23,659 bases of DNA, from NCBI GenBank assembly GCA_027604665.1, contig JADGIZ010000133.1, forward strand, positions 1-23,659, read 5' to 3'. This stretch comes from Polyrhizophydium stewartii (taxonomy: Eukaryota; Chytridiomycota; Chytridiomycetes; Rhizophydiales). Shown in pieces: positions 534-21,788 of this stretch; position 1 is the stretch's first letter; the number at the start of each line of letters is the position of its first letter. Below the pieces are notes generated by a model that had not been told where the DNA came from, did no database searches, and saw only the letters and a list, made by a program, of their open reading frames with translations. The translations under genes were made by a program, and so were the position numbers.

Positions 534-1264
534 TCGGGCTGCTATGAAGAATGAAATCAAAGAAATCGCGAAGCTTGATAGTTCGGGTTTATCATTTGCT
601 TAGAGTCTTAGATGATAATAGCACCACCAATAGTAGTATTTAATAGGTTAATTAGAGGTGGAATAGAACATAAGTAACCAATCTAACAAATTTAGAGATC
701 GATTAAGGTAATTATTAGAGTAAGCACATCTGATTTGATGCTGGTGGAGCTGTACGTCATGACCATGATTATTAATTAGGGTGCTTATTATACCATTGTT
801 ACTTATCATAATTAATTCTTTTATTCTTAACCCCTACTAGATAGGGGAAGTAAATTCCTCTAGTTTAAAAGAATTGACCACTCCCTTAACAAGCAATCTA
901 GGATAGCTACGCGTAGATCGACTACCCAGAGAGTTATGATGATAGTTCTCTCAACTTAATAGGATTAGAGCTACCTATGATGGCGGATGTAGCTTCAAGT
1001 TTAATAAGAAACTTCATTATTAATCGTAGTTAAAAAATCTTCACTCTTGATTCATGAGAGGCTTTATTTTATTAGATACTAAAGTTCACCCATCTAATCA
1101 ATGTAGTTGGAGAAAGTAAATAGATTAATCCTTTACGCTTTAAATACTACCTAGAATTAGATTAGGCTGGATAAACCATAATGAGCTGTACTTTTTGTTG
1201 TTAATAGATTTATTCTTACTGGCCTTCGGATTGTTATTATCCCCGCTATTCTATCTAAAATAAG
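534..1264 (-). pseudogene. cox1: Cytochrome c oxidase subunit 1 relic, many frameshifts
   Basis: COX1 is the catalytic membrane subunit of complex IV. No frame stays open, but the minus strand gives, in the correct order, short blocks resembling conserved COX1 motifs: LIRLELAG at 1264-1241, VTAH then MV and PAL at 1191-1161, the WLLPPSL region at 1128-1094, SLHLAGASSIIG-INF at 1024-955, AITMLLTD at 912-886, W-HPE at 798-774, TIGG-IV at 637-611, and A-F-FILSMGA at 574-534. Each block is in a different frame or contains stops. The span is about 730 bases for a stretch that normally needs more than 1000, so net deletion dominates. In the W-HPE block the second Phe-Phe-Gly is changed, next to the copper ligand. 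The start and the last third are not found. Eight motifs in order make chance unlikely, but each one alone is weak. Confidence 0.6.
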
Positions 1265-3176
1265 CCAACCTCCTATTTATTGGATAATCAATCTACCCAT
1301 ACTCATCACCTTAGACAACATAACCATAGTTCTAAACCGATTGGCAGTAGGATTCTCCACAGTAAATAATTACAGCACGAGAGACGCTGGAGGGACCTTT
1401 ATTCGAGACGATTGTTAGATTGGTGCGTCATTCTGCAACCGACCTTCCCTCCTCTTTGGTCGATAGACCCCTTGATCTTTAGAGGCTTTGATTCCTGTGT
1501 TCCCTCTGAGAATCATAGATACACTTTCCTCTTTGAGTCCCTAACATTTGTTTGGTTGGGTTTTAGTCAATTTCCTTCTGGAAATTATCTGTTGGTATGG
1601 AGACGATGGCTCAAAGCCTACTTCCCATTGTATTAGCTTTTGATATTTGGTTATCTTCAAGTACTCAATAAATATACGATCATATTTATATAATCAGCTT
1701 CATTATTAGCTTAGAATACCCCCTCTGATTGGAAGGCAGTAATATGATTGTATATAATAAACTCGGCTTTATCAGATGATGTAGCAGAAGTTGTCTTTAG
1801 AAATGTAGCCCTAGTCCATTATTCCTAGTATCAGCAGATTCTTGTCAAGTAAACGAATAATTGTCGTCATGGAGTAATTCAAAGGATTACCTCTAACCTG
1901 AGCAGCCTAGGAGGCCCTAAAAGCTGCTTTAATCGGGTCTAGAGTAAAGTCGTGATGTACTTTCTGTTGATTATTTAGGATCGCCCCCCCGTTGTGCAAA
2001 ATCATAAGTACTTGAATTAATTAATTGCCTATTTTAACTTTAAAGGTTTCTTGTTATGTTCGGACACACAACTTGTTCGTGGTCATTATTATACCCTAAA
2101 TAGTTTAACGAACCTCCATCTTTGATTATGACTTCTATACCATTAAATCTAAATAATTGGGAGCGACTCCGACGCGGTAACCTCAAAAAGGTGAAGTTGA
2201 TTATATGGTTTATCGAGCGGAGCTCTTGTCCTGAGTTTTACTCTTGGGCTTCCTAAGCAATCTACGATTGCTGAATAGTGAAGCAATCAGGTTTTCCTAC
2301 CTAAACAACTAGATGTTGTTTTAGATTTAACTGGAAATAAACCAGCTTCGAGGGGTGAAATAATTATCCCCAGTAAAAAGAATAGCAGAGAATATTAAGA
2401 AAGTATTCAAATCATAAGATTGGTAAGAATAATATTTATAGATACTTAGCTATTGGTTAATTATTTGATACATAATCATGATCATTCGTAAATAGTAGCA
2501 ATACTGCAACAATAAGAATACCATTAATAACTACAGATCTAAATACTAAATAAACAGCCAACTAAATACGGATCCAGTAAAGATGATTTGTAACAGTAAT
2601 TATTTATAGGATTTATTTTCTGATGAAGCATATTTAGGCTCAGGAGGTATTAAAGATAGATCTGCACCCTGGTCAATATACGCTTCATATCTATTAACAA
2701 GTTCTTTCGATTCGCTTTGGTACTACTTAGGTTTTCTCTCGATCTTTAGGTCGATTTACTTAAATATTCTTCCTTTTTAGATCTATCCTAATAATAATCT
2801 ATCAATTCAAATTGGCTATCTATAGGCATAATAAAATAGGACCAATATCATAATATGATCTAACAGCTAGGCTTATTTAACCCCAGAATTACACCATTGA
2901 TACACCTAATAAAAATGACCTATGGTCGATCAATAAAATCCAGTTGATTTGAGTCGTTTCACCGCGTTGAAACACCCGGCCATTTTATTGCTTCATCACA
3001 CTATTCCTCGAAGAGGGGCCATCTTTTTTACTTATTCTTCCTTTTGGTTGAACCCTTACTTTGTCTCCTTACACACACACCCTTATTCTATCTCCTTTTA
3101 TTCCCTATTATTTACTATTTGCGTTTAGGGCATTGCTGACGCTAGCCCGATCTCTACATATCCTGGTTAGCTGACC
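1265..3176. other. Spacer, no recognised gene
   Basis: A mixed AT-rich spacer. Upstream of the cox1 relic (1265-1400, minus strand) there may be further N-terminal cox1 remnants, but I could not anchor them. The frame at 1412-1636 is a chance opening. On the minus strand around 2640-2450 a hydrophobic frame of about 25 codons appears that I could not match to any mitochondrial protein. A first GC-rich hairpin word, gcgactccgacgc, sits at 2163-2175, and a C7 run is at about 1983-1989. Confidence 0.4.
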
Positions 3177-3209
3177 GCGACCGCCTCCTTCAAGGAGGCT
3201 ACGTCGCGG
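3175..3209. repeat. GC-rich nested hairpin, family GCGAC/GTCGC
   Basis: The outer stem CCGCGA (3175-3180) pairs with TCGCGG (3204-3209). Inside it, GCCTCCTT (3183-3190) pairs with AAGGAGGC (3192-3199) around a one-base loop. The 32 bases at 3177-3208 recur exactly in inverted orientation at 13084-13115. It sits in a spacer within AT-rich sequence. The form, a hairpin within a hairpin, resembles the double-hairpin elements described from some fungal mitochondrial genomes; that relationship is inferred from shape only. Confidence 0.75.
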
Positions 3210-3230
3210 CGCGATCTTTATTATGTTGCT

Positions 3231-3260
3231 CGTAAGGACGTCGCTGAGCGCCGTCCGATT
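3231..3260. repeat. GC-rich element with GTAAGGACG / CGTCCGATT ends
   Basis: Reads cgtaaggacg, then tcgctgag, then cgccgtccgatt. The ends GGACG and CGTCC are complementary, so the element folds back on itself. The same ends flank different contents at 3525-3545, 6789-6904 and, inverted, 8182-8199, which marks this as one member of a small repeat family. Confidence 0.65.
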
Positions 3261-3524
3261 AATTCAGGGATATCTGATTACTCCTAAAAACTACTTTAAA
3301 TGTAGGAGATTAATTGTTGTAGATAGGTCAAATAGATGTGCTTGAATTATTTATGGTTTCTGGTTTACAATTATCCTAATTCAATAAATCGATCTATCAT
3401 ATATACCTCTTAATGGTTGGTTTGCTGCTATGATTGATAGGCATGCTAATAGGTCTTGGACTAATACAAATCTACAATTTGTGTGACACTTAAACTGACT
3501 CAGAGGTACCAAATTATGCAATTC

Positions 3525-3545
3525 TGTAAGGACTCCGTCCGATTT
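3525..3545. repeat. Minimal copy of the GTAAGGAC / GTCCGATTT element
   Basis: tgtaaggactccgtccgattt is the shortest member of the family. It consists only of the two ends, with a three-base loop (GGAC-TCC-GTCC). It may be the unfilled form of the longer elements at 3231 and 6789. Confidence 0.6.
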
Positions 3546-3799
3546 GAGCTGTTACGATTAAGAAGGGTTGATGTAAGCCAGTAATGTAGGATTACCTACA
3601 CATTCTTCCCAGGATAAATATACTAAGCCAATAGGAGATAAATCTTAATACTATAGACCTTCTTCTCTAACTTTTTATATATTTTAGGTTGGTTGACCTA
3701 GCTTTACATAGATAATAACCCTTAATCTCTAACCTCCTTAATGAAAATAAGTATATATATGAGAGGTAATGTTAAGAACTATAATAGAAATACCCATGT

Positions 3800-6120
3800 A
3801 TCAATTGTGGTGTAGCTTAAGATAAATATATAGGTAACCCTTTAGGGGGTCTACATTAAAAGGATCAAGACTATAAGGTATTAGGTAAAAGAAATCCTTA
3901 CATATGAGATAGGTATGGGTTAAATCTATACAAGTCTAATTAGAAGAGCTACATTTACTAAACATATCTGTATATAGGTATCTCCTACATAGTTTATATA
4001 ACCCTTTCTTGGCCTAGTAGAACTTATACCAATTTGTCCGGAGGCAATTCTAGAGTTTAGACCTACTATGGTTCTATGTATATCCTAAGAAGATGTTATA
4101 ATAAATAGATTCAAGGTGTGTAATTAAATAGACCTACTGAGAAAGGAACTATACCCTGCAGTTTAGATATGCCAATTTATTAGCTGGGTAGAAAGAGGAG
4201 GGTAAAGAAGAGAAATAAACTAAGAGGTAGGTTAACCTTTAAATAAATAACCGAATTTCTATAGATTTCTTATCTAATTAAACCAATATCTCATGTATAA
4301 TTGATGGAGAGTCCCCTAGTTGATGATCTAACAACTTGTATGTAAAATAAAGTATCTACAGGAGTTTCTCTCATACAAATATAATTATTTATTTAGATAA
4401 TATACGAAGGATAACCAGGTGAGATATAGAAAGTATAGGAATCCCTTAAGGGCTAAATTTGATGTGTTGTGAGAGATCGGTCCCTATCAAATTATAGTAT
4501 ATAGACTCCATCTAATTGGGTTATTAGGGGTACCTTGTCATTGACTTGAGGTTAGAAAGATTATTTATATATGTTCTTAAGGGAGATTGGCCCTATAATC
4601 GGTAAAATTAATCAGGATCACCCCTAAAAGAAATAGGATGTGTTAATCTTCAACATAATGTATAGTCGGTATAAGATCCTAAATATTACTGTGATAGATC
4701 CGTATTGTATATAACTCAACTTCACAAATGCTATTAAGCTCAAGATCCAGGGTCTTTCTTAATAAATTAGGATAAACCCTCCGCGGCAATTATAACCATT
4801 TTTATTAGCCTAGATGTCAATTATAGAAGAAAGGAAAAGAGAATATAATGGATAGCTCCTTCTTTATAATAGATGCTATTTCTTTGTTTACCTAACCAAT
4901 TCTATATAATCTAGAGGGAAAGAGATTTATTAATTGGAACCAAGAGGCTGTATATATAGTACTCCAAATAGAACATACAATAAAGTTATTACCTCGATAA
5001 CAATGGGTTTATTTACAACTCCTATCTTATAGCAGATTTAAGGGAGATCTTAGACTAAGTTAGATAGCAAGAGAACAAAAGTTATTATCTATAAAACAAT
5101 GGGTTGGGATCTAATCAATTGCACAATATATCTAATTTTCTTTTATATTAATCTAGCACTCTTTATCAGCACCCTAGTTTCTATTGATTTAATAACCTCA
5201 ACTAATTTGGATTAAGAGAATTCGCCCGGAGGGCTACGCACTGAATTCTGGGTCTAAATCAATTATTAGGATTTTATGTGGAGGGTCCACCCATTAAGGC
5301 CTAGAAGTGTTATAAGATACCTCTGTATATAGCGGATTAAAGATTCTAGTAATTAAGAATAATCTGGGAAGTCTACAATTAATTTGGATACTACACATTA
5401 TAAAAGAGGTCTTACCTACTTATTTGTAACCTAATCTTTAAGGGAACCAACCTACCAAATAGAATCTGTCCTTAATAATAAGAGAGACCTAAGAGAATAG
5501 ATTACTATTTAGAAGTATGTTCATTAATAATCCTCCACCTTTTTTATTATACGAAAGAAGTTACAATGTAACTCAAAGTAGATTAGGATTTATCCCCTGG
5601 TTTGTATAACTATTAGGATTCAGGGATGAAGTTCAAATAGAACGCTCGGTTCCTTTAGTTTATCCTATTATTTCTTATATACAGCGTATGGTTCCCAATA
5701 GATAATATCTCATTTATAAGAACTATCGGCCTTTTAGGTATACATCTTCTCCTCTGCAGGTCTTGGGTATTATAAGCCAATTAAGGTATATCCTCTTGAA
5801 GAGAAGATATTTTATGCGTAGTTATAGGAGATGATCTAAGATTTATTAAGGTCAACCAACCATTTTTTAGATCCAGTAAAGTCTACATAATTTTAATAGA
5901 GTGCTTAACCCTCAATACAAGCAGGTATATATCACAATAGTCATTAATAATTATCTTTCTAGATAGAACCTAAGGCACCTGATTAGTAATTATTTTGACC
6001 CATTTCAGAAATGGACCAATATAGGATAGCTGATCTCTATACTGTACAAAGTTTGGAATATAAATAGCTAATTGTAATCTAGGAGCATAGGCTTCATTAT
6101 ATAAGAAGTACACCTCCCTT
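3800..6120 (+). rRNA. rns: Small-subunit ribosomal RNA, degenerate (rns relic)
   Basis: The small-subunit rRNA is the decoding RNA of the mitochondrial ribosome. Its conserved landmarks appear in order on the plus strand: a 5'-domain-like stretch at 3801-3838; the 530 loop as ctccgcggcaat at 4779-4790; the ATTAGATACC loop as tataagatacc with a following TAAA at about 5309-5341; the GAATTGACGG region as gagacctaagagaatag at 5484-5500; the GCATGTTGTTTAATTCGA region as gtatgttcattaataatcc at about 5516-5534; the AACGAGCGCAACCC region at 5628-5660; and the 3' decoding region at 6066-6118, with gctaattgtaatct followed by gaagtacacctccc. The span of about 2.3 kb is long but within fungal range. The universal ACACACCGCCCGTC is altered, as are the 530 and 900 loops, so this copy does not look functional. 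Both ends are approximate. No GC-rich hairpins interrupt it. Confidence 0.6.
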
Positions 6121-6599
6121 TCTATTAATTAGTTGAGATTGATCCTTCCGTTACAGATCTTATTTGATTTCTATTATAGTTACTTTCTATTATTTTGATC
6201 TAGAACCCCTATGCTAATTCCTTTAGAAAAGAGGGTATCTAAACACGTCCGTTATTATCTAATCTTTAGTAATTTCCTTTCTTCAATTAGATAAATTAGG
6301 ATCTAGATGAGTGCTCTATGTATAGTTTCTTAAGATCATCCTATTAGTTTTATGGTCGATTTGATTACTTATTTACCCTTTATACGTGCTAAATGTTATC
6401 GAATAACCTCTTTACTGTTAGCTTGACGATTTAACCTTCCAATGCTACTCTGTCTGCTGATAGAAATTGCGCATAATGATTACCTATTATGGATTCACCT
6501 GGTCTGACTTAGTACGCTTCATCTCATTTCATCGCGAAGCCTCGGAGTGGCCGGCCCCATCCGGGGCCTACGCCACACAACTCATTCGATTCGCTCTCG
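6121..6599. other. Spacer after rns, with a possible repeat fragment
   Basis: No gene is recognised. The segment moves from AT-rich rRNA-like sequence into the GC-hairpin spacer. The word catctcatttcatcg at 6520-6534 is identical to 21006-21020 inside a structured repeat, and the bases around it (a nearby 'tagtacg' and a pairing gcttc/gaagc) suggest a diverged or truncated copy of that element. The frame at 6467-6751 runs through this repeat and is not credible as a gene. Confidence 0.35.
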
Positions 6600-6621
6600 G
6601 GGGGCCGTCGACGACCAGGTG
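6600..6621. repeat. 22-base dispersed repeat, copy 1
   Basis: gggggccgtcgacgaccagg followed by tg. The same 22 bases with one difference (g to t at the middle) recur in the same orientation at 16022-16043, nearly 10 kb away. The flanks are unrelated beyond a few bases, as expected for a small transposed unit. Confidence 0.7.
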
Positions 6622-6788
6622 CCCGATTAGGTTGTGTCCGCTCGATTTGATGTCGAATCCATCCGTCTTCTACTCTTTTGTGGTTTTTCATCATCATTGT
6701 CTATTATTTCAAAGATCGATTTTGGATTTTTGTCAAATTGAAGCAATCTGATATTGCTTAAGGAGTGCCATTAAGAGCATCTGGGATT

Positions 6789-6904
6789 TGTAAGGACGAC
6801 CCCCCTTAAGGGGGGGCGGAGTGGCGGGGGCCCCCCTTAGGGGGGCCCCCCCGGATCCTTCAGATCCGGGCCGGAGGCTAGCCACGAACGCGCCGTCCGA
6901 TTTT
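6789..6904. repeat. Composite GC-rich element, four nested hairpins inside GTAAGGACG/CGTCCGATTT ends
   Basis: The outer ends tgtaaggacg (6789-6798) and cgccgtccgatttt (6891-6904) match the minimal element at 3525. Inside are C6-TTAA-G7 (6800-6816), a long G/C dyad around TTA (about 6826-6850), and the perfect hairpin CCGGATC-CTTCA-GATCCGG (6851-6869). The last hairpin core also occurs at 15869-15885 in a different cluster. It reads like a small element into which other small hairpin elements have inserted. Confidence 0.7.
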
Positions 6905-7809
6905 ATTATCAAGTTCAACCTCCACGATCATAGGGCAATTATTCTAGCTTCAATCATAGCGCGTCAGCCTACTTTGTTGCTATTTTTAACTCCCATTTCA
7001 GGGTTATTCTGAATTAACTAAGTTGATGGAGTTCATATTTAGGATAATAGTCGGAGGTGATAGAGAATAGGTTAATATCAATAAATCAGACCAAGCTTCA
7101 TCAACTTGCTTTTGTTGCTAAGTCTATTCATTCCGTTCAACAAGCTCACCCCACCTAGGCGCGGAGGGCCGATTATTTTTTATTTTCTGGTACGCTCAGA
7201 CGCTATGCAGGCTACAATCCAGTTACCAGATTCGTCTTTTTACTTAAGTATCTATGGTTTCCTAATCCTTTAGAGCGACTCTGTCTGGTAACCTCCACCA
7301 TCAATCTGCCCCAATTATTCATAAGCATTAACTAAATTGGGAGCGCGCCTTGGAGCGGGTAAAGCAATCCGCGGCGGATACCGCTCCAAAAACATTTGCG
7401 CTGCTGAACCGGTGATTTGGCCAGTTAATTTAGAAATCACTCATTTGACAAGAAGCAATCTTTGAATTATTACTGGTGTGACTAGAAATACGTATGTCTA
7501 TGTGGTTGACTAAAGGATATTCTAATCCAATCTGGGACGGGGACAAGGGTAGTAAAGAATGACGCTACGCTCCATCCTCTCACCCTCCGTGATACTTCAG
7601 GTGGGCCGGATTTCGTCTTTGCTCAGATCTCGCTCTGGCCGCTTGGGCCAATTGAACAATCGCAGATTGTGAAATAGTCTAACAACTGAGAATTAAGAAA
7701 TAATTGTAAAAGTAATAAGAGGTAAACTAAAGAAAGCACAATTGTATTTCCTGTTTATGGTTACCTAAATATCTTGAAATTAAACTACACAATATAATAA
7801 ATAGCCTGT
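6905..7809. other. Spacer with scattered GC-rich hairpin fragments
   Basis: No gene is recognised. At 7369-7387 ccgcggcggataccgctcc is a near copy, in inverted orientation, of the core of the 32-base repeat at 19452 and 19595. At about 7272-7300 gagcgactctgtctggtaacctcc resembles 2161-2184. An AT-rich stretch near 7690-7790 on the minus strand hints at a COX1 'NHK' start or an ATP6 segment, but neither could be supported. Confidence 0.35.
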
Positions 7810-8070
7810 TAGTTGAAGCGGCTGGCCGTGACGTCGCCTCGGTCACTCAGCGACCGGGCTTCGCCCACCGGGCCAATTTGCAGGTTTCATAGCGACGCTA
7901 ACGCGTGCTGACGCAACGTCGCAACCGCGACTCCGTCGCTGCAGCAATTGCTCGGTCCCATTTGGAGCGACTCCGTCGCGGCAGCCAGATGGGTTATATA
8001 GGGACCGCTAGGAGTCGCTCCTAGCTTTGGCCGTGACGTCAATCTAAGATCGGTCACGGACGTGACGTAG
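7810..8070. repeat. Large GC-rich hairpin cluster
   Basis: About 260 bases of much higher GC content than the surroundings, built from short inverted modules. gcgactccgtcgc occurs at 7927-7939 and again at 7967-7979 (stem GCGAC/GTCGC, loop TCC), gctaggagtcgctcctagc at about 8007-8025 is an imperfect hairpin, and ggccgtgacgtc occurs near both ends (about 7824 and 8029). The modules recur singly elsewhere in the window (2163, 13190, 21372), so the cluster looks like several elements inserted next to or into one another. Confidence 0.7.
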
Positions 8071-8181
8071 GAATGAAGCTCGATTAGAAATGATCAATAA
8101 AGTCCGAATCAATAGTTAGACCAGGTTCAATAGAACTTTCTAATTCAAGAAGTTATAGGACAGGAGCAAGAGAAATAGAAT

Positions 8182-8199
8182 AAATCGGACGGCGTTACG
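8182..8199. repeat. Inverted copy of the CGTCCGATTT element end
   Basis: aaatcggacggcgttacg is the reverse complement of cgtaacgccgtccgattt. It keeps the right-hand end of the element family seen at 3231, 3525 and 6789 and a shortened left end. It is the only copy found in this orientation. Confidence 0.5.
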
Positions 8200-8596
8200 A
8201 AGCTGGTCGCTCATTTATTTAGGTGAGGTTACAACCCAAACAGATTAGCCATCAACTTTAGCAAATACTCAGAGCTATTAGACCTGTAATAGTAACAGGG
8301 AAGCTAGAAAAGCGACCAACAGAAGTCTTTCAAAAATCAATCTTGAACAACCACCTACGGTGGTTTAGAGAAGTCATCACGAGTTAATCGATCTTCTATA
8401 TCGACCCTTTGCTTTTTATAATAATAATCAAGTACTTGCGCTTGAATTGGAGCGACTCATAGCGGGCCTTATTCAGAAATGCGGATTAATCAGGTTTTGA
8501 GGATTTGTCATTTATTTTAGGATACATGAGATTCATCAAGGGTTATGATGAATTCCTAAAGATTATGCCTTTTAGTCTTGCTCTCTTATGTCTTTA
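8200..8596. other. Spacer, no recognised gene
   Basis: Mixed sequence with one further GC-rich word (ggagcgactcatagcgggcc near 8450). On the minus strand the part nearest 8596 may hold further degraded nad5 sequence downstream of the recognised block, but no motif is clear enough to call. Confidence 0.35.
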
Positions 8597-8709
8597 CTAC
8601 TGGTGAATATGAGATGAAGTAAAAGCCTAAGACAAATCCAATAACTAAAACAGTAAGAGAATCATAATAATAAGACTAATTACTAAATACCATCAGATTC
8701 ACTCATTCC
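8597..8709 (-). pseudogene. nad5: NADH dehydrogenase subunit 5 relic
   Basis: ND5 is a proton-pumping membrane subunit of complex I. On the minus strand the reading YYYDSLTV followed by LVIGFVLGFYFISYSP matches the ND5 segment FDSLTVSMLIPVL-VSSLVH-YSI-YM, with a few residues deleted in the middle. Just upstream, broken by frameshifts and a stop in place of Trp, is the preceding SEWF-ISWGF-YDS segment (about 8709-8660). Only about 110 bases of a gene that normally exceeds 1900 can be recognised. Neighbouring sequence in both directions is too degraded to follow. DSLTV with the correct flanks on both sides makes the call reasonable. Confidence 0.5.
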
Positions 8710-8977: not shown

Positions 8978-9304
8978 ACTCCGGCTGATCCATCCCAATT
9001 TATTTGATTTCAGCATTCATACGAATGCTCTTAATCCTCATCGAGCAATCAAGGTCCTCAACATTTCTAACTCAGGATTAAAGCTAAACTAAGATAATCA
9101 CCAATAAAGCAGTTTCTACGATTAACAATTTAGAATTGTGGTATCACTTCATCAGATCTTTAAAAGTCTTTAGCATATGGAAAAAGTCAGGACGATTTCT
9201 TTATTTTCATCTCGAGCTGCTACACCCTTAGGATGAGGTGAATTAGATGCAATTCCAGATAAGGTGTGATTAGGATAATTGAACAGACATAAACCATTAT
9301 TATT

Positions 9305-9351: not shown

Positions 9352-9372
9352 CTGCATAGCTGGATCTTGCTT

Positions 9373-9815
9373 GTACCATGGTAGTGGTTCAACTCCTCAA
9401 CTTACGTTGAGCAATTGAATAATTGCTTCATTCTTTATTAGAAAAGGTTTATCTCCATTGATGAAACCAATTTATAAACTATATGGGCCCTCCAATTACA
9501 ATGAATAGTAGTAAAATGAAGAAGTAATGAAACGCAGAGTCGTAGCCAAATACCCCAAGATCTCGTGTTGTGTCGAGCTCATAGAAGCGGTAATTAGATC
9601 AATGGTATTTGGCATTGAGTATCCTAGCAATAGGCAATAGTAGGTTACAATAGGAGAATAGGCAAATAATCCAAGAGTAGCTGTAGGTAACAAAATAATT
9701 GAAGAATAGATGAACTCATTGAAGATAGAATAGTTCATTTGAATATTGAAAATAGCTCACGTAATGGGTAATATAGTAAATGAAATGAATAGATCGGTGA
9801 ATGTAATGATATTAT
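9373..9815 (-). pseudogene. cox3: Cytochrome c oxidase subunit 3 relic
   Basis: COX3 is a core membrane subunit of complex IV. On the minus strand, blocks in order resemble HLVSPSPWPIYTSFS (9812-9772), the SEIMFF helix (about 9738-9715), SP-VE (9659-9647), LGY-MP-NTIILLSSG (about 9625-9583), LG--ATIL, EYYES (near 9500), and GFEAA-WYWHFVD as GVEPLPWY (9396-9373). Two overlapping short open frames (9938-9735 and 9738-9496) cover part of it, hydrophobic as expected, but no single frame spans the gene and stops interrupt it. About 440 bases represent a gene of about 800. The motifs are individually loose but colinear. A possible atp9 fragment follows, and cox2 lies head-to-head on the other strand. 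Confidence 0.5.
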
Positions 9816-10845: not shown

Positions 10846-11714
10846 TATATAGTTAGTTATCCTAGACCTGCAGGGGTTTTATGTAATTTTCGAGGTTTCG
10901 ATGAACCTCCATCCAAATAAGAGACCAACTCTATTGATTTATTATTTATATAAACCCATCCAATGGAGGGGGTCCCGCATTCGCGACAACTCTTTCTAGA
11001 GTCCTTATTTCTTTATCCAATCGCGTCAGCCGCTTCTAACTCATAAAGATCTACACTTAATTAAATAAGCCACTGTCTGGTGGCTTTCCTCTAAATTATC
11101 CATAACCTCATATAGAATAAACCGCCAACTCCAAAAGTAGGTTTGATAATTGCTGATAAGTCATAGCTTCATCACAACTTTCCAAATTGCAAAATAGAAG
11201 CGAGTTTCAAAATGAAACCAGGGGTGAAAGATCATCAGTAGGTAAGCCTCTATTCCTTATTTTCTACTCTATCGAGTGGGTCAACTTCCAGATCGAGGTA
11301 ATTGTCCTGCATATCTAACCATGAACCTATTTACATCAGTTTCATTTATCGTTTTATCTTTTATCCCCCTTTTGGAGGTTCACCCTATATTCCTCATCTA
11401 ATAAAATAATAAGCACAATAAGAAATTAGTCACACACGATTTATTGAAACAATTTTCAAATTGGACCGCGTACGCCGCTAAAACCTTCATATATAACTTA
11501 TAGACTTCATTGACCTATTTAGAAGTGTTAATTATAAATAACTAATTTAATTCACTAAACGCATTATCGTTTAACTAGTAAGACTAATCATAAATACTTA
11601 CCCTTAATTAACCCTCTTAAGGGGTTTCACTAACAAAAAAGTAACTTAGTAAATCGACTAAGTCGATTGCAAATTATTCATAATTAGATTGTCTATTCTA
11701 GCCTTAATTTTATT
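10846..11714. other. Spacer, no recognised gene
   Basis: A sequence of mixed composition with a small GC patch near 10970-10990 and the short word cgcgtcagccgctt at about 11022-11035, which recurs in other spacers. The part approaching 11715 is AT-rich and probably contains the unrecognisable C-terminal end of the cob relic on the minus strand. I see no other gene. Confidence 0.4.
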
Positions 11715-12514
11715 CTATTATACCTTATTAAACACTATAGATGCTGAACTATCATATTAAACAATACAGAATAACCAGAAAACTAATATTAAATTGTACT
11801 GGGTTATTAATAAAACTTAGACGAATAATTATTATATCTCTTTCATGTTGACTTATACTTGGCTAATAAGTATGTTTTAGCTTTATAATTTAGGGTAAAG
11901 TTACCATCAGCTGTGACAAAATCCGTAATCCTATGAGGATCCAATGACTAATTACTGTGTACGAAAAGAGGACATTTTATAGAATAGTTGTCACTAATCT
12001 ATATGGAAATAGATTCATTCAAGCTTTTGATAAGCTATACTTAAGTTTAGCTATATTAATAAAACCTTCCTAGTTAATGTTATAACCTTCATTAATTATA
12101 TCCATGGCCTTACATCACAAATTGTTATATTATGCTGGACTAAAAGTCTCGTTATATCTATCTATTCACTAGACTAGAAAGGTAGGGGAGTCCAACCTAA
12201 ATCTAATTATAATATATCATAAGTTATGGTAGATCCTTATAAACTAGTACAACTTATCTAGAATCTTTTCAGAAAAGATGAAGCAACATTAGCGTGAATG
12301 TATCAAATCATCCATCCATAGTTTACGTTCCGCATGATCGACACGAAGGCCAGGTCAACGTTAGGTGTGTAATGCATAGCAAGGATAACCCCTGTAGCAA
12401 TTTGGATACCTAGACAAACAGCTAGAAGTTATCCACCATGCGGAACTTAGCTGGTGAGGCAACAACGTAACTGTTAACGATACCTAGAGGTTAGTTAGAT
12501 TTTTATAGACGCAT
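11715..12514 (-). pseudogene. cob: Cytochrome b relic, partly very well preserved
   Basis: Cytochrome b is the haem-bearing core of complex III. A start ATG at 12514-12512 opens a frame reading MRL-KS-, then NSYVVASPA, broken by two TAA codons. After a frame change, 12428-12261 is free of TAA/TAG for 56 codons and contains [20 protein letters not shown] followed by [17 protein letters not shown] and YIHANVAS, a near-perfect fungal-type sequence including one haem-ligand His. Within it 'SVEH' is lost and an Arg is TGA. Beyond, in changing frames, come RGLYYGS, a degraded FLGYVLP, PW--DII--GGF, GSS--LG, Y-IK, NPVQ (11811-11790) and a final SI--NKV near 11720. The second haem-ligand region is damaged. 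About 800 bases represent at least 900 of the normal gene. TGA at this Arg position gives no evidence for a code. This is the most secure gene identification in the window. Confidence 0.85.
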
Positions 12515-13949: not shown

Positions 13950-14055
13950 AACCTGGCTTTTAGTCGCGACCGCGACCGGGGCTTCTGAGGCGACGTCGCA
14001 CCTACGGTGCTTGAAGCACCGGACCCCTTAAGGGTCCATTAGGAGGCTAGTCGCA
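13950..14055. repeat. GC-rich hairpin cluster
   Basis: Contains several adjacent hairpins: gcgacgtcgc (about 13990-13999, fully self-complementary), GGTGC-TTGAA-GCACC (14006-14020) and GGACCC-CTTAA-GGGTCC (14021-14037), bordered by tagtcgcgac and ctagtcgcac. The cttctgaggcgacgtcgc string also appears, inverted, as gcgacgtcgcctcagaag at 15839-15856, so the two clusters share modules in a different order. Confidence 0.7.
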
Positions 14056-14130
14056 CTTACAAACTAATACAATGAAAAATTACACTATCTTCTTATGGAT
14101 TCCTTAGCAGCTGAATTGAAAATATGCAAC

Positions 14131-14610
14131 CTATGTTCAATGAAGAAACGAATAATAAAAACAGGTTATATAGCTAATCAAATGGAAACTACTTAACTTG
14201 TAAATAAATAATAAGATAAAAGTTGTAAAGCTAGATTGATCACATAGAGGATAACCATTAGCTAATAATCACCACAAATCATTAATTTGTTTTGCCTTCA
14301 AACCTTTATAATATCTGACAGAGGCTGCCATTAGTCAAATTGAAAAGTTAATTAAACCCCATTTGATGTCGATGTTATAACTAGTAAATCTACTAACTTC
14401 TTAAGAAGGAGGATGATTGATAATGAGAAGATGGAGTCGATCCGCGACTAGATCGATGAATGATCATTTAATGATGAAAATTGCCTTCTAATTAGAATAT
14501 AGATAAATAAGCAAGGGGAGACACTAGGAATAAACCTAAATGATAAAAGCCAACTCCGAGACGGGTTATGATTAGAATGTTTTAGATGAAGTAATGAATT
14601 ATGATAACCA
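14131..14610 (-). pseudogene. nad4: NADH dehydrogenase subunit 4 relic
   Basis: ND4 is a proton-pumping membrane subunit of complex I. On the minus strand the order is: degraded AHMN region (about 14605-14585), G--LL-LSHG-LVSS-L with frame changes (about 14565-14525), LFI-ILI-R (about 14515-14490), and then, after a GC-containing break, RYYKGL (about 14325), LAN--PL and F-EF-L (about 14270-14230), matching KYYRG, LANI-VPL-CNF-GEFL. From 14400 to 14131 the frame lacks TAA and TAG for 89 codons and reads through three TGA codons, as it would in a code where TGA is Trp. Opposite frame content at 14448-14807 is not needed to explain it. The LPEAHVEAP proton-channel motif, which should lie upstream, was not found. 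The order of four blocks is convincing; each alone is weak. Confidence 0.45.
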
Positions 14611-15837
14611 TCGATATCGCTCAGCCGCTTAGATCGATAGAGAAGCCATAGCAATTGAACGTAGTGATGATCTATATAACATAAGTTAGATTTATCGAGC
14701 TCATCGAGGTTTCGATCTTCTTCACCAACTTTGACGTGGCTGGCCACGGAGCGGCTTGAGCGAGTTTGTTCTTTTTCCACAGAATCGGCCCTAAAGAGGC
14801 TTCTCAAAGCTACGGATCCATAATAGAACTCAAATTGATGATATACCAGAACTAAGAATATGACGTATTAGCAAAAGTTCAAAGCAGCAAATGAATTAAA
14901 AGGCAACGGAAGGGTTTGATCACCTTATTCAGAATTAGATCGGGCTTTGGTTATCCTTTTAATCTTTAGTTTGTATCTTTTCTAGTTATATGTTAATAAA
15001 TAGTTTGGACTTTGGATCAATGGTTGAACTATAACAGAAACGCTATGACGGTAAGATGTGGCCCATTTATCAATATCCAATGGCCACGGTGGCACAGTGA
15101 ATTGAGAGTAATCAAGTAAACGATAGGCAAATCCTCTTGTATAATGACAAGGGACTAAAATGAAAGGCAGATTCTCATAGACACGCCTGCTCTAAACCAT
15201 CCGATCGATGGGTCCACTCCTTATAGTTGTTTCTTAGTAAATGGTACTAGACCCTTAATCTATAGTAAATATGGTCTAGATTGAGTTTCTCTTATTTAGC
15301 TATGCTTTCTATTTATCATAAAGTAATATAAAACTAGTTTAATCGTTTAAAAGATCGATCCTACACTTACATTAGATCTATCTCATCTAATATGGACTCT
15401 TATTTCTATTCAGTCTACTTCCATAATATAAATGGCAGTGATAAGGTTATCAATCTTGTAATTACCTGTTAGAAATCTTTAGGCCTAATAAACTCTACAC
15501 CTTCTATAGGGTTTACTGCTTTATTGAAGTTGATCATCCTATGACTCTGTCGATGTTGTAGGTAAATTATAGCTATTTACAGTTCAGTTAAATTGAGATT
15601 AGTAGTAATATTGCTAACATCATTAAAATTAGTCATTGAGTTCTTTAGTTAAATTCAATTGACCTAGTCCAACTATGATACATTATTACGGGAGCTTATC
15701 CTAGCTAATTGGAGAATCACCCAGTCATGTACCTAGGAGTACTAGCCTAAGCTTATAAAAGGATCTCACCTGGTTTGACCCTGTCCCCATTAGATGGTGT
15801 TTAGATAAGTCTCATTTCGGGTTAGATGGCAAATATC
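14611..15837. other. Spacer, possible upstream nad4 remnants
   Basis: A GC-containing insert with ggctggccacggagcggcttgagcg lies near 14738-14763. Around 15050 on the minus strand a short LTVIAF stretch could belong to the ND4 LSVIAI segment displaced by insertion, but nothing connects it to the nad4 relic. 15240-15800 is mixed to AT-rich, and I recognise no gene there. Confidence 0.3.
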
Positions 15838-15910
15838 GCGACGTCGCCTCAGAAGCTCTTCTGAGGCCCGGATCCTTCAGATCCGCGGCCACTCTAGAGA
15901 GTGGCGTCGC
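15838..15910. repeat. Cruciform-like GC element with three hairpins
   Basis: Outer arms GCGACG (15839-15844) and CGTCGC (15905-15910) enclose three perfect hairpins in a row: CCTCAGAAG/CTTCTGAGG (15847-15866), CGGATC-CTTCA-GATCCG (15869-15885) and GCCACTCT-AG-AGAGTGGC (15888-15905, sharing its last base with the outer arm). The middle hairpin is shared with the composite element at 6851-6869. Outer ends plus inserted hairpins repeat the architecture of 3175-3209. Confidence 0.75.
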
Positions 15911-16879
15911 TCCGGGATCTCTAGCCTCCTCCCTTTAGTGTCGATAATAAAATCGATAACCCTCACTTGTTCTGGGTGAGGAGGCTGCAATCAATAAAAA
16001 ATCTTATCTAGAAATCTCATCGGGGGCCGTCTACGACCAGGTGGCTGGATATCCCTTCTAGTCTAGGGTTCTATTCTTTATTGACCTCCCTAGTTACATT
16101 TATAGAAGCCTTAATTAGATGACTTATAGATAGTCAAGGTAGAATATTCTCTGGAGAATAGACCTAAATCATCAGAGAGGACCTAGCCGACCCATTTATG
16201 AAGTTAGATTAATTAGAACCAGGGGAAGAATCTCTACAATTAAGTAGTAATCATTCATTTTACCAACTACTATTTTGCTTCTGAAGGATGTACCTTATAT
16301 AAAATCTATTATTAGCCATACAGATGGATTTGAGCACTTACTGGTGTTGGCATAAGAATTAGGGTTGTATAATAGTAACAACTCTTATATTAGATCATAA
16401 ATTATTTGTGATCGTTGAAGAAGACCCTAAATATTTTAGCAATTAACAGGTTTTAAGATTAAACCGAATACTACTATAAAAACTAGCCGAGCATAAGAAA
16501 GATCGAGGCACATCCTTTAACACTTATACGAAACCTAACTGAGCATCACCTATACTACCCAGGGGCGACCCCCCGCCTACGACATCCCGGTAACACTGCG
16601 GGCCTAAAGCCAAAAACTACTTTTATTCTTTCCTATTTGACGTCATCCCATTTAGCTTTACCCCCCCATAGTGTAGTCTTATAGTAATTTAATGCGATAT
16701 TTCATGGAAAAATAGATCTAAGATCTACCAATAAAAAAAGTACGACTAGCTAATAACCATAGGCTCTAGAATCGGATCAGTATTTGGACTGGCTTCTCCC
16801 TCGCACCCACCTTTGGATGGGGCTCCTTCAGTATTATCTAATTTATTAAGAACATGAATAAGTCCTTAGTCTAATAATT
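15911..16879. other. Spacer, no recognised gene
   Basis: Includes the hairpin cctcactt...gggtgagg near 15961-15983, the second copy of the 22-base repeat at 16022-16043, a C-rich patch at 16564-16600 and a C7 run near 16661. The sequence in between (16060-16550) is mixed AT-rich DNA without a recognisable gene on either strand. Confidence 0.4.
16022..16043. repeat. 22-base dispersed repeat, copy 2
   Basis: gggggccgtctacgaccagg followed by tg. It differs by one base from 6600-6621 and has the same orientation. It lies in a spacer close to the cruciform-like cluster at 15838-15910. Confidence 0.7.
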
Positions 16880-19385
16880 GATACCCTTTTTTAACGTCTA
16901 TTTATGCAGCAGGATTAATTGAATATAAGCTACCATGCTATTAAGTATTCCATCTACTTTATATGATTAAAAAGCAACTATGATTAATCGCTAATTCTAT
17001 TTCAATATTAGGGAGGAGGAGTGTCTGATTAAAGATAACTGATTTTCTTATATGCCTTTTAGCCGTGGTTTATATATTGCGTACTAGGTTAAATATGCTA
17101 CTAATAAATCCTTACTAGATAGCAGGGTGAAGGCCAAATCATCTGTAGAATGGTTAAGATCAAAAAGTATGAACAGGCAAAACATAGATAAATCAGGTTT
17201 AATTATATATACAGCATAGATTCACCGAATTACAATAACTTTTATATAATATTTCTTGGCTTACCCTTGGAATTAAGAGAAATAATGATATATATTAGAT
17301 AGGTTTATTATAAATACTAAGATTCTTCAAGACTAATTTGAGGATAATATTTATTAGACAGCAGAATTCAAGTACTATATTAAAATTACCCCCCCCCCAG
17401 AGAAGAATGATATATTAGATAGAGAAATAAGGGGGTATATAAAAATACCGGATAAGAAGACAAAGTAGTAATCGTTATAATTTCTATAAATGGGTACAAC
17501 TTATCATTCTAAGCCTATATATTATCTGGTTCTCTCTTTCTTTATATAAACTCTCTAATTTGGGATCTCTAACCTACTTAGACTTTATTTTAGATATCCT
17601 GTGAGAAAGGGATATAACTAAATAGAACCTATTTTGTGCTATTGTAAGGTTTCCCTTGGATACAAATAAAAGGTGCGGTAATTTAATGGCTAAGATAATT
17701 AAACTATAAGATGATCATTGTAAAGATTCGTATAGTATAGACATGATCTATTTTCTAACCTAAGCCTTGTATACTTCATTTATTGAAACTTATATTCTCA
17801 ATTGTAACAGTTTTATAAATTTAATCAGATTTGGTACACCTACTAATTTAACCTTAACTTCTTATTTATAAATTGGATAGGGAGATATAGAAGTACCTAC
17901 TAAATTATATACCAAAGAAGTGATGATTAGACTAAATTCCATCTAGGTTTCTATAGTCTTTTATTCTGGATACATCAAATAGGAGTTTACAATATCTATT
18001 TCATTTCTTAATAATTCTTATGGAGGGGATCCTATATTTCTACCCAGTAATACAAATTATATCTAGAATCTAAACTAGGTATCTTCCATCAGGGTCTCTT
18101 TACAAATTATTTGGATATAATACATTAAGAATCTCTAGGTTGTATATAGCAATAAATTAGTAACTTTATTATAGGATCTTCTTTCTAATTTACATTTCTA
18201 TTAATCCAAATATCTATACATAAAGAGGTTCTAACTATTATTCTTTAATATCCTATACTTTTCTATTGATATAAGTCTATAAATAAGATTTTACACAATA
18301 TTTTATTAGATCCCTATACAAAGAGAGGAATTGAGATAATATACTTCTGTAGTAAACCTACCCATTCTAATTATAAATAATAAGGGGCTTCTCCATGTTA
18401 TATAATCCTAAGGATCTTCTTTCTACCCCAATAAATAGATCTTATCAATATTTTACCTATAGATGGGTAAAGAACATATCTAATAAGTCAGATCATCTTC
18501 TCTAAGATAAAGTATAGATAGACAAATAAGAACACATATCATATCTATTCAAAATTAGGTATTTATATAAATAAACTTAACCAGCTTCTCTTAGGGACAT
18601 ATAACTTTTTATATTCACAATAATGGGTTAATCTACAGACCCTTCTACCACAATATATAAGATACTTTGAAGTGGATGGTTTCTTAATTATAGCATAATC
18701 TCCTTAGGTTTATCTTTACCTAATATAGTATAGATTCCCATCTATTTGATCAGAATAAGCCTCTGTGAAAGATAATAAAATTGATTAATAAAACATAGGC
18801 CAACCAGTGTGTAGGTATGTCCTCCTCTATTAAAAAGAATATATTACTTTATACACCCCAATAAATATATCTGATAACTTCAAAAGAGACCATGGAGAAG
18901 GAGCTAGAATAGAAATTATGACTAGAAAATTGGTTAGCATGATGGTAGGGATTACACTTCTATAATTAAGAGATACATCGTTGAACTACACTTAAGGAAA
19001 TTAACTCTAATAACCTTATAATCTAATTTATAGGAAATGAAAGAACCGTAGATGTAACAGACCAGATCTCGTGTTTTTTACCTCTTCTCTTGCAATCTAA
19101 TAATTTACCTTAAATATTGGTTACCTACCCAGATTTGACAATCAATTAATTTTGGATTCTTATAATAAATATAAAACTATTGGAGAAAGGTTTAGATTAA
19201 ATAGTTGAGATATTCTCTTTAATTAGGTTCTATCGGATTAAGTATATCCTACATCAAATGTATAATTATCTGGAAATAAAGATTATACTGGTTAAAACTA
19301 TTGGGATATATCCTTAGGAACCTATTTTATTAGACTCAGGATTATTCCCATTTAAACGTAGAAATCCCCGAGAGTTGAAGTAGAG
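16880..19385 (+). rRNA. rnl: Large-subunit ribosomal RNA, degenerate (rnl relic)
   Basis: The large-subunit rRNA is the peptidyl-transferase RNA. Landmarks follow in order on the plus strand: the GTPase-centre region as aaaaggtgcggtaatttaatggctaag (about 17668-17694); gattaataaaacatagg for the TTTATTAAAAACACAG segment (18783-18799); gttagcatgatgg for ATGAATGG (about 18933-18945); the helix before the peptidyl loop (18964-18998); gaaatgaaagaaccgtagatgtaac for GACAGAAAGACCCTATGAAGCTTTACTG (19034-19058); gagaaaggtttagattaa; tatcggattaagtatatcct for GATGTCGGCTC--ATCCT (about 19231-19250); ctggttaaaactattgggatatatc then aggaacctat for GGGTTTAGAACGTCGTGAGACAG--GGT-CCTATCT (19288-19326); and agactcaggatta for the sarcin-ricin loop (19332-19344). 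Several near-invariant bases are changed, including the AGTACGAGAGGA loop, so it does not look functional. The 5' boundary is a guess; firm support starts near 17660. A run of ten C lies at 17389-17398. Confidence 0.6.
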
Positions 19386-19451
19386 GTGGCACCTATTTAG
19401 GGAGCGGCATTGAAAATGGCATGATTTAGAGAAAGTGTGAATATCGAAATC

Positions 19452-19483
19452 GATTTTGTAGCGGCATCCGCCGCGGGTGGTTT
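19452..19483. repeat. 32-base direct repeat, copy 1
   Basis: gattttgtagcggcatccgc continues to ccgcgggtggttt. An identical 32-base copy follows at 19595-19626 in the same orientation. The core folds as GCGGC-ATCC-GCCGC. A near copy of the core lies inverted at 7369-7387. It lies just after the end of the rnl relic. Confidence 0.8.
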
Positions 19484-19541
19484 TTTTGAAAGCTTATTTT
19501 ATTTTAATATAGAACTGCTTGAGAGGTGTTTGATCTGAATT

Positions 19542-19562
19542 AGATGGGGTTTTCCCCTAGAT
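19542..19562. repeat. 21-base dispersed inverted repeat, arm 1
   Basis: agatggggttttcccctagat is the exact reverse complement of 21079-21099. Within each copy GGGG and CCCC flank an A/T tetranucleotide, so each is also a small hairpin (GGGG-TTTT-CCCC). Confidence 0.7.
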
Positions 19563-19594
19563 GAATAAAATAGACCAAAATGAAGATGCATGTT

Positions 19595-19626
19595 GATTTT
19601 GTAGCGGCATCCGCCGCGGGTGGTTT
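19595..19626. repeat. 32-base direct repeat, copy 2
   Basis: Exact copy of 19452-19483, separated from it by 111 bases of unrelated sequence that includes the GGGGTTTTCCCC hairpin. Exact identity, in a region where genes have decayed heavily, suggests recent duplication. Confidence 0.8.
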
Positions 19627-19700
19627 GTTGTTTTTGGTCGATGACGTGATGATCGCGGATGAGGTGCTAGATTAGATAGAATAAATAGATAGTCATCTTG

Positions 19701-19780
19701 CCTGGGTCTGGGCGGGGCCCATCAAAGTAAGCCAAGCGAGCTTGACGAGTGAGGCGACACGTAAAATAGCCAGACCCAGG
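19701..19780. repeat. Structured repeat 'GGGCGGGGCCCATCAAAG', copy C with 11-bp inverted ends
   Basis: CCTGGGTCTGG (19701-19711) and CCAGACCCAGG (19770-19780) are perfect inverted repeats. They enclose the box gggcggggcccatcaaagt (19710-19728), a small hairpin CAAGC-GA-GCTTG (about 19733-19744), and a diverged right box gacacgtaaaatag (about 19756-19769). The architecture matches copy B at 20981-21059, but the flanking stem sequence is entirely different. Confidence 0.75.
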
Positions 19781-20206
19781 CTATAGATCTCTTAAGGATA
19801 GGTCAACCCTCAGCACTAGATTTTACTTGAGTTTGATGCTCAAAGTAGATGCTGAACTATTTGCAGATTAGACCATCTAATGGTAACGATATCAGGTTCA
19901 TAAACAAATAAACGATATAGGCTATATCCCATTTGGTATATCAAATTGATAATACTAAATCCATCCGTATTGGAACCATTTATGGTACTATATTAGTGCT
20001 AAATTGCTCGCGACCAGATCTACAACTATAGAAAAGATTAGGCTAGCTTCATATTTGACGAATCATTCATTTAGATACTAGATCTTGCATAGTTTCTTAT
20101 TTAGATGTTAATTCTATATAGTTTTTACCTTCTAATTTCTAATAATATGTTATGACTTGATAATGTATCATCTTTAAAGCTATATTCACCCTAAATAATG
20201 TAATGG
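19781..20206. other. Spacer, no recognised gene
   Basis: AT-rich sequence upstream of the nad1 block. It contains tagatgctgaactat at about 19846-19860, identical to 15 bases near 11739-11753, possibly chance. The approach to 20207 probably contains unrecognisable nad1 sequence. Confidence 0.35.
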
Positions 20207-20308
20207 ATAGCCTCTAGATCTATTTAAGAAGAAGCAGATCCGGGTGAGAAATTCAATGTTATGAAGATACCCTATTTCTTTATTATTTCCCTAATAGTGT
20301 TTCTCATA
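20207..20308 (+). pseudogene. nad1: NADH dehydrogenase subunit 1 relic
   Basis: ND1 is the complex I membrane subunit that forms the quinone entry site. On the plus strand a continuous stretch reads approximately IAS, then EEAD, G, FNV, and a hydrophobic run YFFIISLIVFLI. This lays against the most conserved part of ND1, [39 protein letters not shown]. NRAPF and ESELV are deleted, and a TAA stands before the acidic pair. About 100 bases are recognisable out of about 1000. EA-D followed by G-FNV at the right distance is the main support. nad6 follows on the same strand about 350 bases later, separated by a GC-hairpin cluster. Confidence 0.45.
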
Positions 20309-20569
20309 TAAAAGAGGAGACCCTATTTCTAAATAGAGGTCAATCTACCAAGCTATTTTTATTAATGTAGAAGAGAAAGGGCCCAATAATTAAATTATAA
20401 AACATTTCCTATGAGAGGTCTAATAATGTATACGTTCTTGATTGATTGATCTGCACCTAGGATTATCCTTCCTATTTATTATAGATCCTATTTTAGATGA
20501 CTCCTCAAAACCTTGGAAGAATAGGAATTAACCCCTGAGAGTGGCCATCATAACAAATCACTGTGTCGC
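20309..20569. other. AT-rich stretch between nad1 relic and hairpin cluster
   Basis: No further ND1 motif is recognised after 20308. The sequence is AT-rich with no GC hairpin and ends at the GC-rich cluster starting near 20564. Confidence 0.3.
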
Positions 20570-20650
20570 GGACGCTAGTCGCGTCAGCACGCTTGAGCGT
20601 CGGGGCGTCGCCCCGGTCGCGGACGTGACTAGCCTACGGGCTACGTCGCT
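20564..20650. repeat. GC-rich hairpin cluster between nad1 and nad6 relics
   Basis: Adjacent hairpins ACGCT-TG-AGCGT (20589-20600), GGGGC-GTC-GCCCC (20602-20614) and TAGCC-TACG-GGCTA (20630-20643) lie in sequence rich in gtcgcg words. ctagtcgcgtcagc links it to the spacer words at 7898 and 11021. Confidence 0.7.
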
Positions 20651-20654
20651 CTAT

Positions 20655-20760
20655 TATTGCAATTATATTGGTATTGATCACCACTGTTAGTTATTATTAG
20701 TAGTTACCTGTAGGAGCTATTGTTTATTATTAAGACCTTATAATGATGAGGATAGTTAAG
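20655..20760 (+). pseudogene. nad6: NADH dehydrogenase subunit 6 relic
   Basis: ND6 is a complex I membrane subunit. On the plus strand the text is consistent with LLGID-F--L-FLIIVYVGAIAILFLFVIMML: a LLGID start near 20665, LVII near 20685, an intact VGAIV at about 20710-20724, then a stop and DLIMM (about 20734-20748). VGAI followed at the right distance by IMM is characteristic of ND6. Possible C-terminal remnants (L-T-N---ISI near 20908-20935) could extend it to about 20960, but they are not secure. Frames change at least three times in about 100 bases. Confidence 0.5.
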
Positions 20761-20980
20761 CGATTTCTGAGCGTGTTTTATCCAACTTACATGAACAACT
20801 CCATATCTAAGTGAGGCACGCTATTCAGGCTTGGGTCTATTTAGTAGTTTATTAGATTGATCCTATATCCTGCTATCAACTGATTTACATCATGCTATAG
20901 AAAATCATCTTACTCATAATTCTTTAATAAGCATCTATTGGTTTATATCTAATTCTCCATCTATTTGACATGAATGGATG

Positions 20981-21059
20981 ACCTCATCGGGGCTAAAATA
21001 CGTATCATCTCATTTCATCGATCTTAAGATCGACTTTGATGGGCCCCGCCCGATGAGGT
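20981..21059. repeat. Structured repeat 'GGGCGGGGCCCATCAAAG', copy B (inverted), 11-bp inverted ends
   Basis: ACCTCATCGGG (20981-20991) and CCCGATGAGGT (21049-21059) are perfect inverted ends. Inside, read on the minus strand, are the box cgggcggggcccatcaaagt (21052-21033), the palindrome TCGATCTTAAGATCGA (21033-21018), gatgaaatgagatg, and the right box gatacgtattttag (about 21006-20993). It shares both boxes with copy A at 8926 and the overall architecture with copy C at 19701. Confidence 0.8.
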
Positions 21060-21078
21060 TCTCCTCACTTTTTACGCA

Positions 21079-21099
21079 ATCTAGGGGAAAACCCCATCT
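21079..21099. repeat. 21-base dispersed inverted repeat, arm 2
   Basis: atctaggggaaaaccccatct is the exact reverse complement of 19542-19562. It lies 20 bases from the end of copy B, and the matching arm lies about 140 bases from copy C. Confidence 0.7.
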
Positions 21100-21698
21100 C
21101 ATCTAGAATATCATCACGCAATCAACGAAAATGGCTCGCCCCGGAACACGGGGGGTTATCGATTGGATGGGGGGGTAGCCACCTAACGAAGTTTAGAAAT
21201 TGGTTTGAGGGTATCGATTGATCAGTAAATGCAAAATCGATCAATCAACGAAAATTGCTCCGCTGCTACTCATACCATTACTAGATTAGATGGGATATCT
21301 TGCCTAATCAACCCAATTCTTGTTTTATCATCAGACTATTGAAATAGTCCGTCAAAATTGTCAATGCGGGAGCGACCTACGTCGCGTATGCATATTTCAT
21401 CCCCCCTCCATTTATAGGGGAAAACGCCTTCTATTAATAAAATCAACCAAATAAATGAGGCAATGAAGATGTAATTTAGAATTAACTCCATTTGAATAGT
21501 AGCTGAATTACATATGCGATTAGATTCATATTACTGCTTTAATACAGCTCAAATAACTACCAGAATTAGATCATGAAGACTGATAAATATTCCTGTTAGT
21601 AGTTAAGCTAGAGATTGTCATGAATATTATTTAGAATTACCAATTTGATGTTAGAGTTGATAAGAGACATTTTGTATCATTATTTCAACTAACTTACC
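21100..21698. other. Spacer with short direct repeats
   Basis: aatcaacgaaaat followed by gctcgcc or gctccgc occurs at about 21119-21138 and again at 21244-21262. Between them lie a G-rich stretch (gatggggggg) and the inverted pair atcgattgatc / gatcaatc (about 21213 and 21238). A GCGAC-CTAC-GTCGC hairpin lies at 21372-21385. No gene is recognised before 21699. Confidence 0.45.
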
Positions 21699-21788
21699 AC
21701 TTTCTATGTACTAATATTGAGTAAGGTAATAATCTCAATCATAAATAGAACACTGATAGATACATTCATAGAGATAATCAGTCTAGAG
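21699..21788 (+). pseudogene. nad4L: Possible NADH dehydrogenase subunit 4L relic
   Basis: ND4L is a small complex I membrane subunit. The plus-strand frame reads YVLILS, VIIS, INR, then TLIDTF and IEIISL, which lays against LFLIGILGFILNRKN-ILMLISIEIMLL. The Asn-Arg (21744-21749) and the Ile-Glu-Ile (21768-21776, including the membrane Glu) are the key agreements; the Lys-Asn after Arg is deleted. Sequence after 21788 is not recognised. The match covers about 25 residues of about 90 and is tentative. It lies downstream of nad1 and nad6 on the same strand. Confidence 0.35.

What the first reader, a model, noticed from the sequence alone, without database searches (positions are those of the whole stretch)
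534..21788. A near-complete mitochondrial gene set in which every recognisable gene is broken
Seen: conserved blocks of cox1, rns, nad5, cox3, cox2, nad3, cob, nad4, rnl, nad1, nad6 and nad4L, each colinear inside but interrupted by stops and frame changes, and no long open frame anywhere. Known: a working mtDNA keeps these genes intact or uses introns or editing. Inference: this is a whole-mtDNA relic (large nuclear insertion or defunct duplicate). The alternatives are a genome whose RNAs are extensively repaired after transcription, or a corrupted or simulated sequence.
Basis: partly seen in the sequence, partly recalled or inferred. Interest (0 to 1): 0.8.

Follow-up and report, generated by a model that had tools for sequence, protein, structure and literature searches.

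The report
Gene desert of giant fungal mtDNA
This stretch looks like almost gene-free filler from a very large chytrid-type fungal mitochondrial genome: it carries one broken copy of the start of the cytochrome b gene, not broken copies of nearly every mitochondrial gene, and unbroken mitochondrial genes lie on other pieces of the same assembly.

Summary
The window is a whole contig (C133) of an unnamed eukaryotic assembly, G000. For the other eleven, six-frame Pfam scans in short pieces, frameshift-aware alignment against shuffles, Rfam and rRNA motif scans gave nothing convincing; a slight nad4 excess is told in the checks. The lack of long open frames is confirmed. Elsewhere G000 has unbroken frames of cox3, nad1, nad2, nad4 and nad5 with TAG read as leucine, so neither wholesale RNA repair nor a simulated sequence is needed. 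Window and gene-bearing contigs share GC-rich dispersed repeats: one 19-base core occurs 82 times on 31 contigs, among them 11 of the 14 other contigs with mitochondrial gene matches. Four nuclear tubulin loci are 61-69% GC; the window is 35%. Best reading: gene-poor spacer of a chytrid-type mitochondrial genome of roughly 0.9 Mb or more, littered with decayed gene copies. The size is inferred from contigs, not from a closed molecule.

The parts
12273..12514 (-). broken copy of the start of cob (apocytochrome b), residues 1-89: two TAA codons near the start, two frame changes, missing stretches, TGA at a conserved arginine
   Evidence: PF00033 E 3e-14, hmmscan of shorter pieces, frameshift-aware alignment, 2223 homologues at E up to 0.001, best by E-value 70% identical
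15834..15910 (.). GC-rich dispersed repeat; its 19-base core at 15840-15858 occurs 82 times on 31 contigs of G000
6789..6907 (.). GC-rich dispersed repeat, with copies on many contigs
6496..6629 (.). GC-rich dispersed repeat, copy on C29 and others
20565..20629 (.). GC-rich dispersed repeat; a 20-base core occurs 9 times on 8 contigs
3177..3264 (.). two GC-rich dispersed repeat segments (3177-3217, 3230-3264)
13993..14054 (.). GC-rich dispersed repeat
19694..19784 (.). GC-rich dispersed repeat with copies on C29 and C4

Best explanation
The window is a gene-poor contig of a greatly expanded chytrid-type mitochondrial genome: mostly AT-rich spacer seeded with short GC-rich dispersed repeats. 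Inferred mechanism: recombination and copying, probably helped by these repeats, spread partial copies of genes that are not needed and decay by point changes and small insertions and deletions; the cob fragment is one such remnant. Shown: shared repeats, composition, unbroken genes elsewhere, a broken cob copy here and broken copies of cox1, cox3 and nad5 on other contigs. Inferred: that the repeat-bearing contigs form one mitochondrial genome, and how the copies spread.
For: Repeat core on 31 contigs, 82 matches, reversed control 0; second core on 8 contigs, all in that set. 12 of 15 contigs with mitochondrial gene matches are in the set, 11 of 14 without C133, which holds the core by construction. 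0 of 5 contigs with tubulin matches are in it. Window 35% GC and 28-45% in 1-kb steps; tubulin loci 61-69%. Unbroken frames with TAG as Leu; rnl with group I and II introns on C1. Broken copies on C4 and C42.
Against: No read depth or closed molecule. Besides the window I read four contigs, two of them end to end, about 186 kb. Some of the 31 contigs may be nuclear with a stray repeat.
Confidence: 0.78

Rival explanations
1. Nuclear insertion of mitochondrial DNA (NUMT) that decayed in the nucleus.
For: One broken mitochondrial gene copy and no unbroken gene in the window.
Against: No 1-kb step of the window is above 45% GC, against 61-69% in four nuclear loci; its repeats recur on contigs with unbroken mitochondrial genes.
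Confidence: 0.07
2. Working genes whose RNAs are extensively mended after transcription (insertional editing).
For: The cob block keeps long conserved runs between breaks.
Against: cox3, nad1, nad2, nad4 and nad5 read as unbroken frames in DNA; the cob copy lacks coding stretches and has point changes, and no other cob part lies in the window. No RNA data.
Confidence: 0.03
3. Sequencing or assembly error, or the mitochondrial DNA of a second organism mixed into the assembly.
For: Five near-exact tandem copies of 422-602 bases in C1 and C98 look like contig-joining errors; C4 and C29 carry unlike cox1 starts.
Against: Random base errors would be expected in the unbroken genes too; C4 and C42 each carry both unbroken and broken genes and the same repeats.
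Confidence: 0.12
4. One reading: a near-complete mitochondrial gene set, every gene broken.
For: cob is there and broken; nad4 scores slightly above shuffles.
Against: No other gene found by short-piece Pfam scan, frameshift-aware alignment, Rfam or rRNA motifs, while the alignment method finds genes and broken copies of cox1, cob, nad3, nad5 and cox3 in other contigs.
Confidence: 0.02

Closest known systems
Morchella crassipes mitochondrial genome, 531,195 bp (PMC7014384, passages seen)
   Same: Fungal mitochondrial genome swollen by repeats and non-coding sequence, with a truncated extra gene copy reported.
   Different: A morel; over half of it introns and many ORFs. Here the window has no intron or ORF match and the total, if real, is larger.
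Chytrid mitochondrial genomes using code 16, such as those in PMC6131824 (passages seen)
   Same: TAG as leucine; variable size; cox3 here has chytrids among its named relatives.
   Different: Size range given there is 19.5-298.5 kb; the contigs here sum to at least 888,072 bases.
GC clusters of yeast mitochondrial DNA (recalled, no call)
   Same: Short GC-rich dispersed elements in AT-rich spacer.
   Different: Sequence families not compared.
NUMTs (recalled)
   Same: Broken mitochondrial gene copies.
   Different: Composition and repeats place this contig with mitochondrial, not nuclear, contigs.

Membership tests
Chytrid-type mitochondrial DNA | Mitochondrial genes on the same replicon | tested here: inconclusive
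   On C133 only a broken cob; unbroken genes lie on other contigs linked by shared repeats, not by joined sequence
Chytrid-type mitochondrial DNA | TAG read as leucine | tested here: met
   For other contigs: unbroken cox3 has 6 in-frame TAG, at L 3, I 1, V 1, T 1; cox3 remnant 11, at L 6, I 3, A 1, T 1. The window's cob holds no in-frame TAG, so not testable there
Chytrid-type mitochondrial DNA | Relationship to chytrids | tested here: inconclusive
   Of 120 cox3 relatives listed, four bear an organism name: Synchytrium taraxaci 56%, Nowakowskiella 54%, Blyttiomyces helicus 53%, Harpochytrium 50%; no tree, 18S searches unanswered
NUMT | Embedded in nuclear DNA | tested here: not met
   Whole contig 28-45% GC in 1-kb steps; nuclear loci 61-69%; but no flanks beyond the contig were available
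Insertional RNA editing system | Genes systematically broken in DNA and mended in RNA | tested here: not met
   cox3, nad1, nad2, nad4, nad5 are unbroken frames in DNA; RNA itself not testable
Whole-mtDNA relic | Near-complete set of recognisable gene remnants | tested here: not met
   1 of 12 listed genes supported

The most novel reading that the evidence does not exclude
A chytrid-type fungus with a mitochondrial genome near or above 1 Mb, larger than any fungal one in the papers I saw (531 kb, 2020), made mostly of repeat-seeded non-coding DNA and the wreckage of a second, divergent set of mitochondrial genes that used the same TAG=Leu code, of which the window's cob may be a piece.
Probability: 0.35. 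Interest if true: 0.65.

Novelty: new variant of a known kind. Interest (0 to 1): 0.38.

Why it matters
The window as such is ordinary filler with one dead gene fragment. Its setting could matter: if the contigs join into one organelle genome, it would be far larger than the chytrid range I found in print, and its decayed, divergent gene copies would let one ask whether fungal mitochondria keep or acquire second gene sets. It also shows that gene lists read by eye from AT-rich mitochondrial DNA are unreliable.

Tried and rejected
Long-piece Pfam scans found no mitochondrial family; one search showed that the cob block is found in pieces of 65 to 1833 codons and lost at 4052, so those negatives were dropped and the scan redone in short pieces. 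Window 1-200 and 22955-23659 were not covered by the short pieces.

tblastn of own mitochondrial frames against the window gave GC-repeat matches inside one cox1 frame (E 9e-9 and 0.007), then only noise (E 0.026 and up); several of its queries were wrongly cut frames, so it is weak evidence. The nad4 excess was set aside as told above. ARAGORN found no tRNA in the window or in any of 24 other loci, so its silence says little. Naming the organism by beta-tubulin failed: too conserved. The SSU rRNA searches of the genome did not complete. Three codons missing from the window's cob lie just before the point where the C42 cob exon ends; chance cannot be told from imprecise intron loss, and the 24 cob relatives whose match stops early do so at residues 131-212, not there.

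Absence of a larger fungal mitochondrial genome in print rests on searches (two returned no paper; one listed 15 of 128); open-licence papers only.

Full report
What was claimed.

What is there. The window is the whole of contig C133 of an unnamed 12.86-Mb, 690-contig eukaryotic assembly, G000. It is 35% GC, 28-45% in 1-kb steps. No frame stays open for more than 187 codons even if only TAA stops. Rfam finds nothing at gathering score and two noise matches at E up to 1; ARAGORN finds no tRNA.

The one gene. A search of G000 with PF00033 put its best of four matches in the window, minus strand 12270-12434, E 3e-14. hmmscan confirmed it in pieces up to 1833 codons and in the short-piece scan. 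Frameshift-aware alignment with a profile of 83 homologues extends it to 12273-12514, residues 1-89. The fragment, with X at its breaks, matches 2223 cytochrome b proteins at E up to 0.001, the best by E-value at 70% identity. It is broken: two TAA codons near the start, two frame changes, missing stretches, TGA at a conserved arginine. No other cob part shows in the window (next profile score 49 against 394).

The eleven others. The six-frame scan of 144 pieces (window 201-22954) found no other family of the kind encoded in mitochondrial DNA. Searches of all of G000 with PF00115, PF00361, PF00510, PF00146 and PF00116 gave 9, 5, 3, 5 and 6 matches, none on C133. Frameshift-aware alignment of ten proteins and a cox3 profile, both strands, put only cob clearly above 14 shuffles. 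nad4 passed its shuffle maximum slightly (64, 64 and 60 against 58), but the same reference scores 68-78 at 13 places in other contigs; I treat it as background but cannot exclude faint remnants. The method does find genes and broken copies elsewhere: cox1, cob, nad3, nad5, cox3. For cox2 and nad4L it had no positive control, and nad6 was tested by Pfam only. None of 15 recalled rRNA motifs came closer than in 20 shuffles, whereas rnl is found by Rfam on C1.

Setting. G000 holds unbroken frames, TAG read as leucine, that cover the Pfam domain of cox3 (C116), nad4 (C285), nad2 (C611), nad5 (C4) and nad1 (C17); the nad5 frame may be one exon, its start was not traced. In unbroken cox3, five of six in-frame TAG codons fall at L, I or V of the family consensus. 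Code 16 is used by many chytrids (PMC8672057, passages; PMC6131824, passages). Of 120 cox3 relatives listed, the four with an organism name are Synchytrium taraxaci (56%), Nowakowskiella (54%), Blyttiomyces helicus (53%) and Harpochytrium (50%); the best hit, unnamed, has 60%. cox1 exons with intron endonucleases lie on C98; rnl, group I and group II introns on C1.

Link between window and mitochondrion. One repeat core of the window occurs 82 times on 31 contigs, reversed control 0; a second core occurs 9 times on 8 contigs, all in that set. Of 15 contigs with mitochondrial gene matches 12 are in the set, 11 of 14 without C133 itself. None of the five contigs with tubulin matches is. Four tubulin loci are 61-69% GC. 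The 31 contigs sum to at least 888,072 bases by lengths and coordinates seen, and at least 976,495 if contigs are numbered by falling length, as the 12 known lengths are. Some of them could be nuclear with a stray repeat. Besides the window I read four contigs, C4 and C98 end to end and C1 and C29 in part, about 186 kb. Their six self-matches of 300 bases or more all lie within one fetched locus each, so these contigs are not redundant copies of one another. Repeats shared with them cover 1,486 bases of the window in 24 segments.

Broken copies are common there. C4 has a broken second cox3 and a broken cox1 end, C42 a broken nad5; nad1 and cox2 have several partial matches with stops. The two pieces of the cox3 remnant are 43% and 46% identical to the unbroken cox3 of the same genome; among 121 sequences that gene ranks 103rd and 12th by score, the best reaching 55% and 53%. 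The set compared was chosen for likeness to the unbroken gene, which makes the low rank of the first piece more telling; the second piece is less clear. The window's cob fits the family profile better than the cob exon on C42 does (398 against 212). So the remnants look older or foreign rather than fresh duplicates; I built no tree.

Reading. The window is most likely gene-poor spacer of a very large chytrid-type mitochondrial genome that carries decayed gene fragments, one of them in the window. The largest fungal mitochondrial genome I saw in print is 531,195 bp (PMC7014384, passages), and the chytrid range given is 19.5-298.5 kb (PMC6131824, passages); searches showed no larger one, in open-licence papers only.

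Noticed in passing
window 9152-9260, 9497-9634, 11148-11210: Segments of low GC (33-39%) shared with C1 at 95%, 81% and 95% identity; unlike the GC-rich repeats, and not matched to any gene.
   Followed up: partly
window 19438-19486 and 19581-19629: A 49-base direct repeat, 86% alike, with a GC-rich core.
   Followed up: no
window 23023-23071: Two exact copies of a 25-base AT-rich unit near the contig end.
   Followed up: no
L032 (C4) and L036 (C29): Two unlike, unbroken cox1 starts in one assembly.
   Followed up: partly
contigs C61, C42, C233, C242, C3: Six cox2 matches on five contigs, most with stops and none covering the whole model.
   Followed up: no
L018, L020, L022, L023 (C1) and L025 (C98): Near-exact tandem copies of 422-602 bases, possibly assembly joins.
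   Followed up: no
L051 (C42) against window 12273-12514: The C42 cob exon ends where three codons are missing from the window's cob.
   Followed up: partly
24 loci of other contigs: ARAGORN finds no tRNA in any of them, although many carry mitochondrial genes.
   Followed up: no
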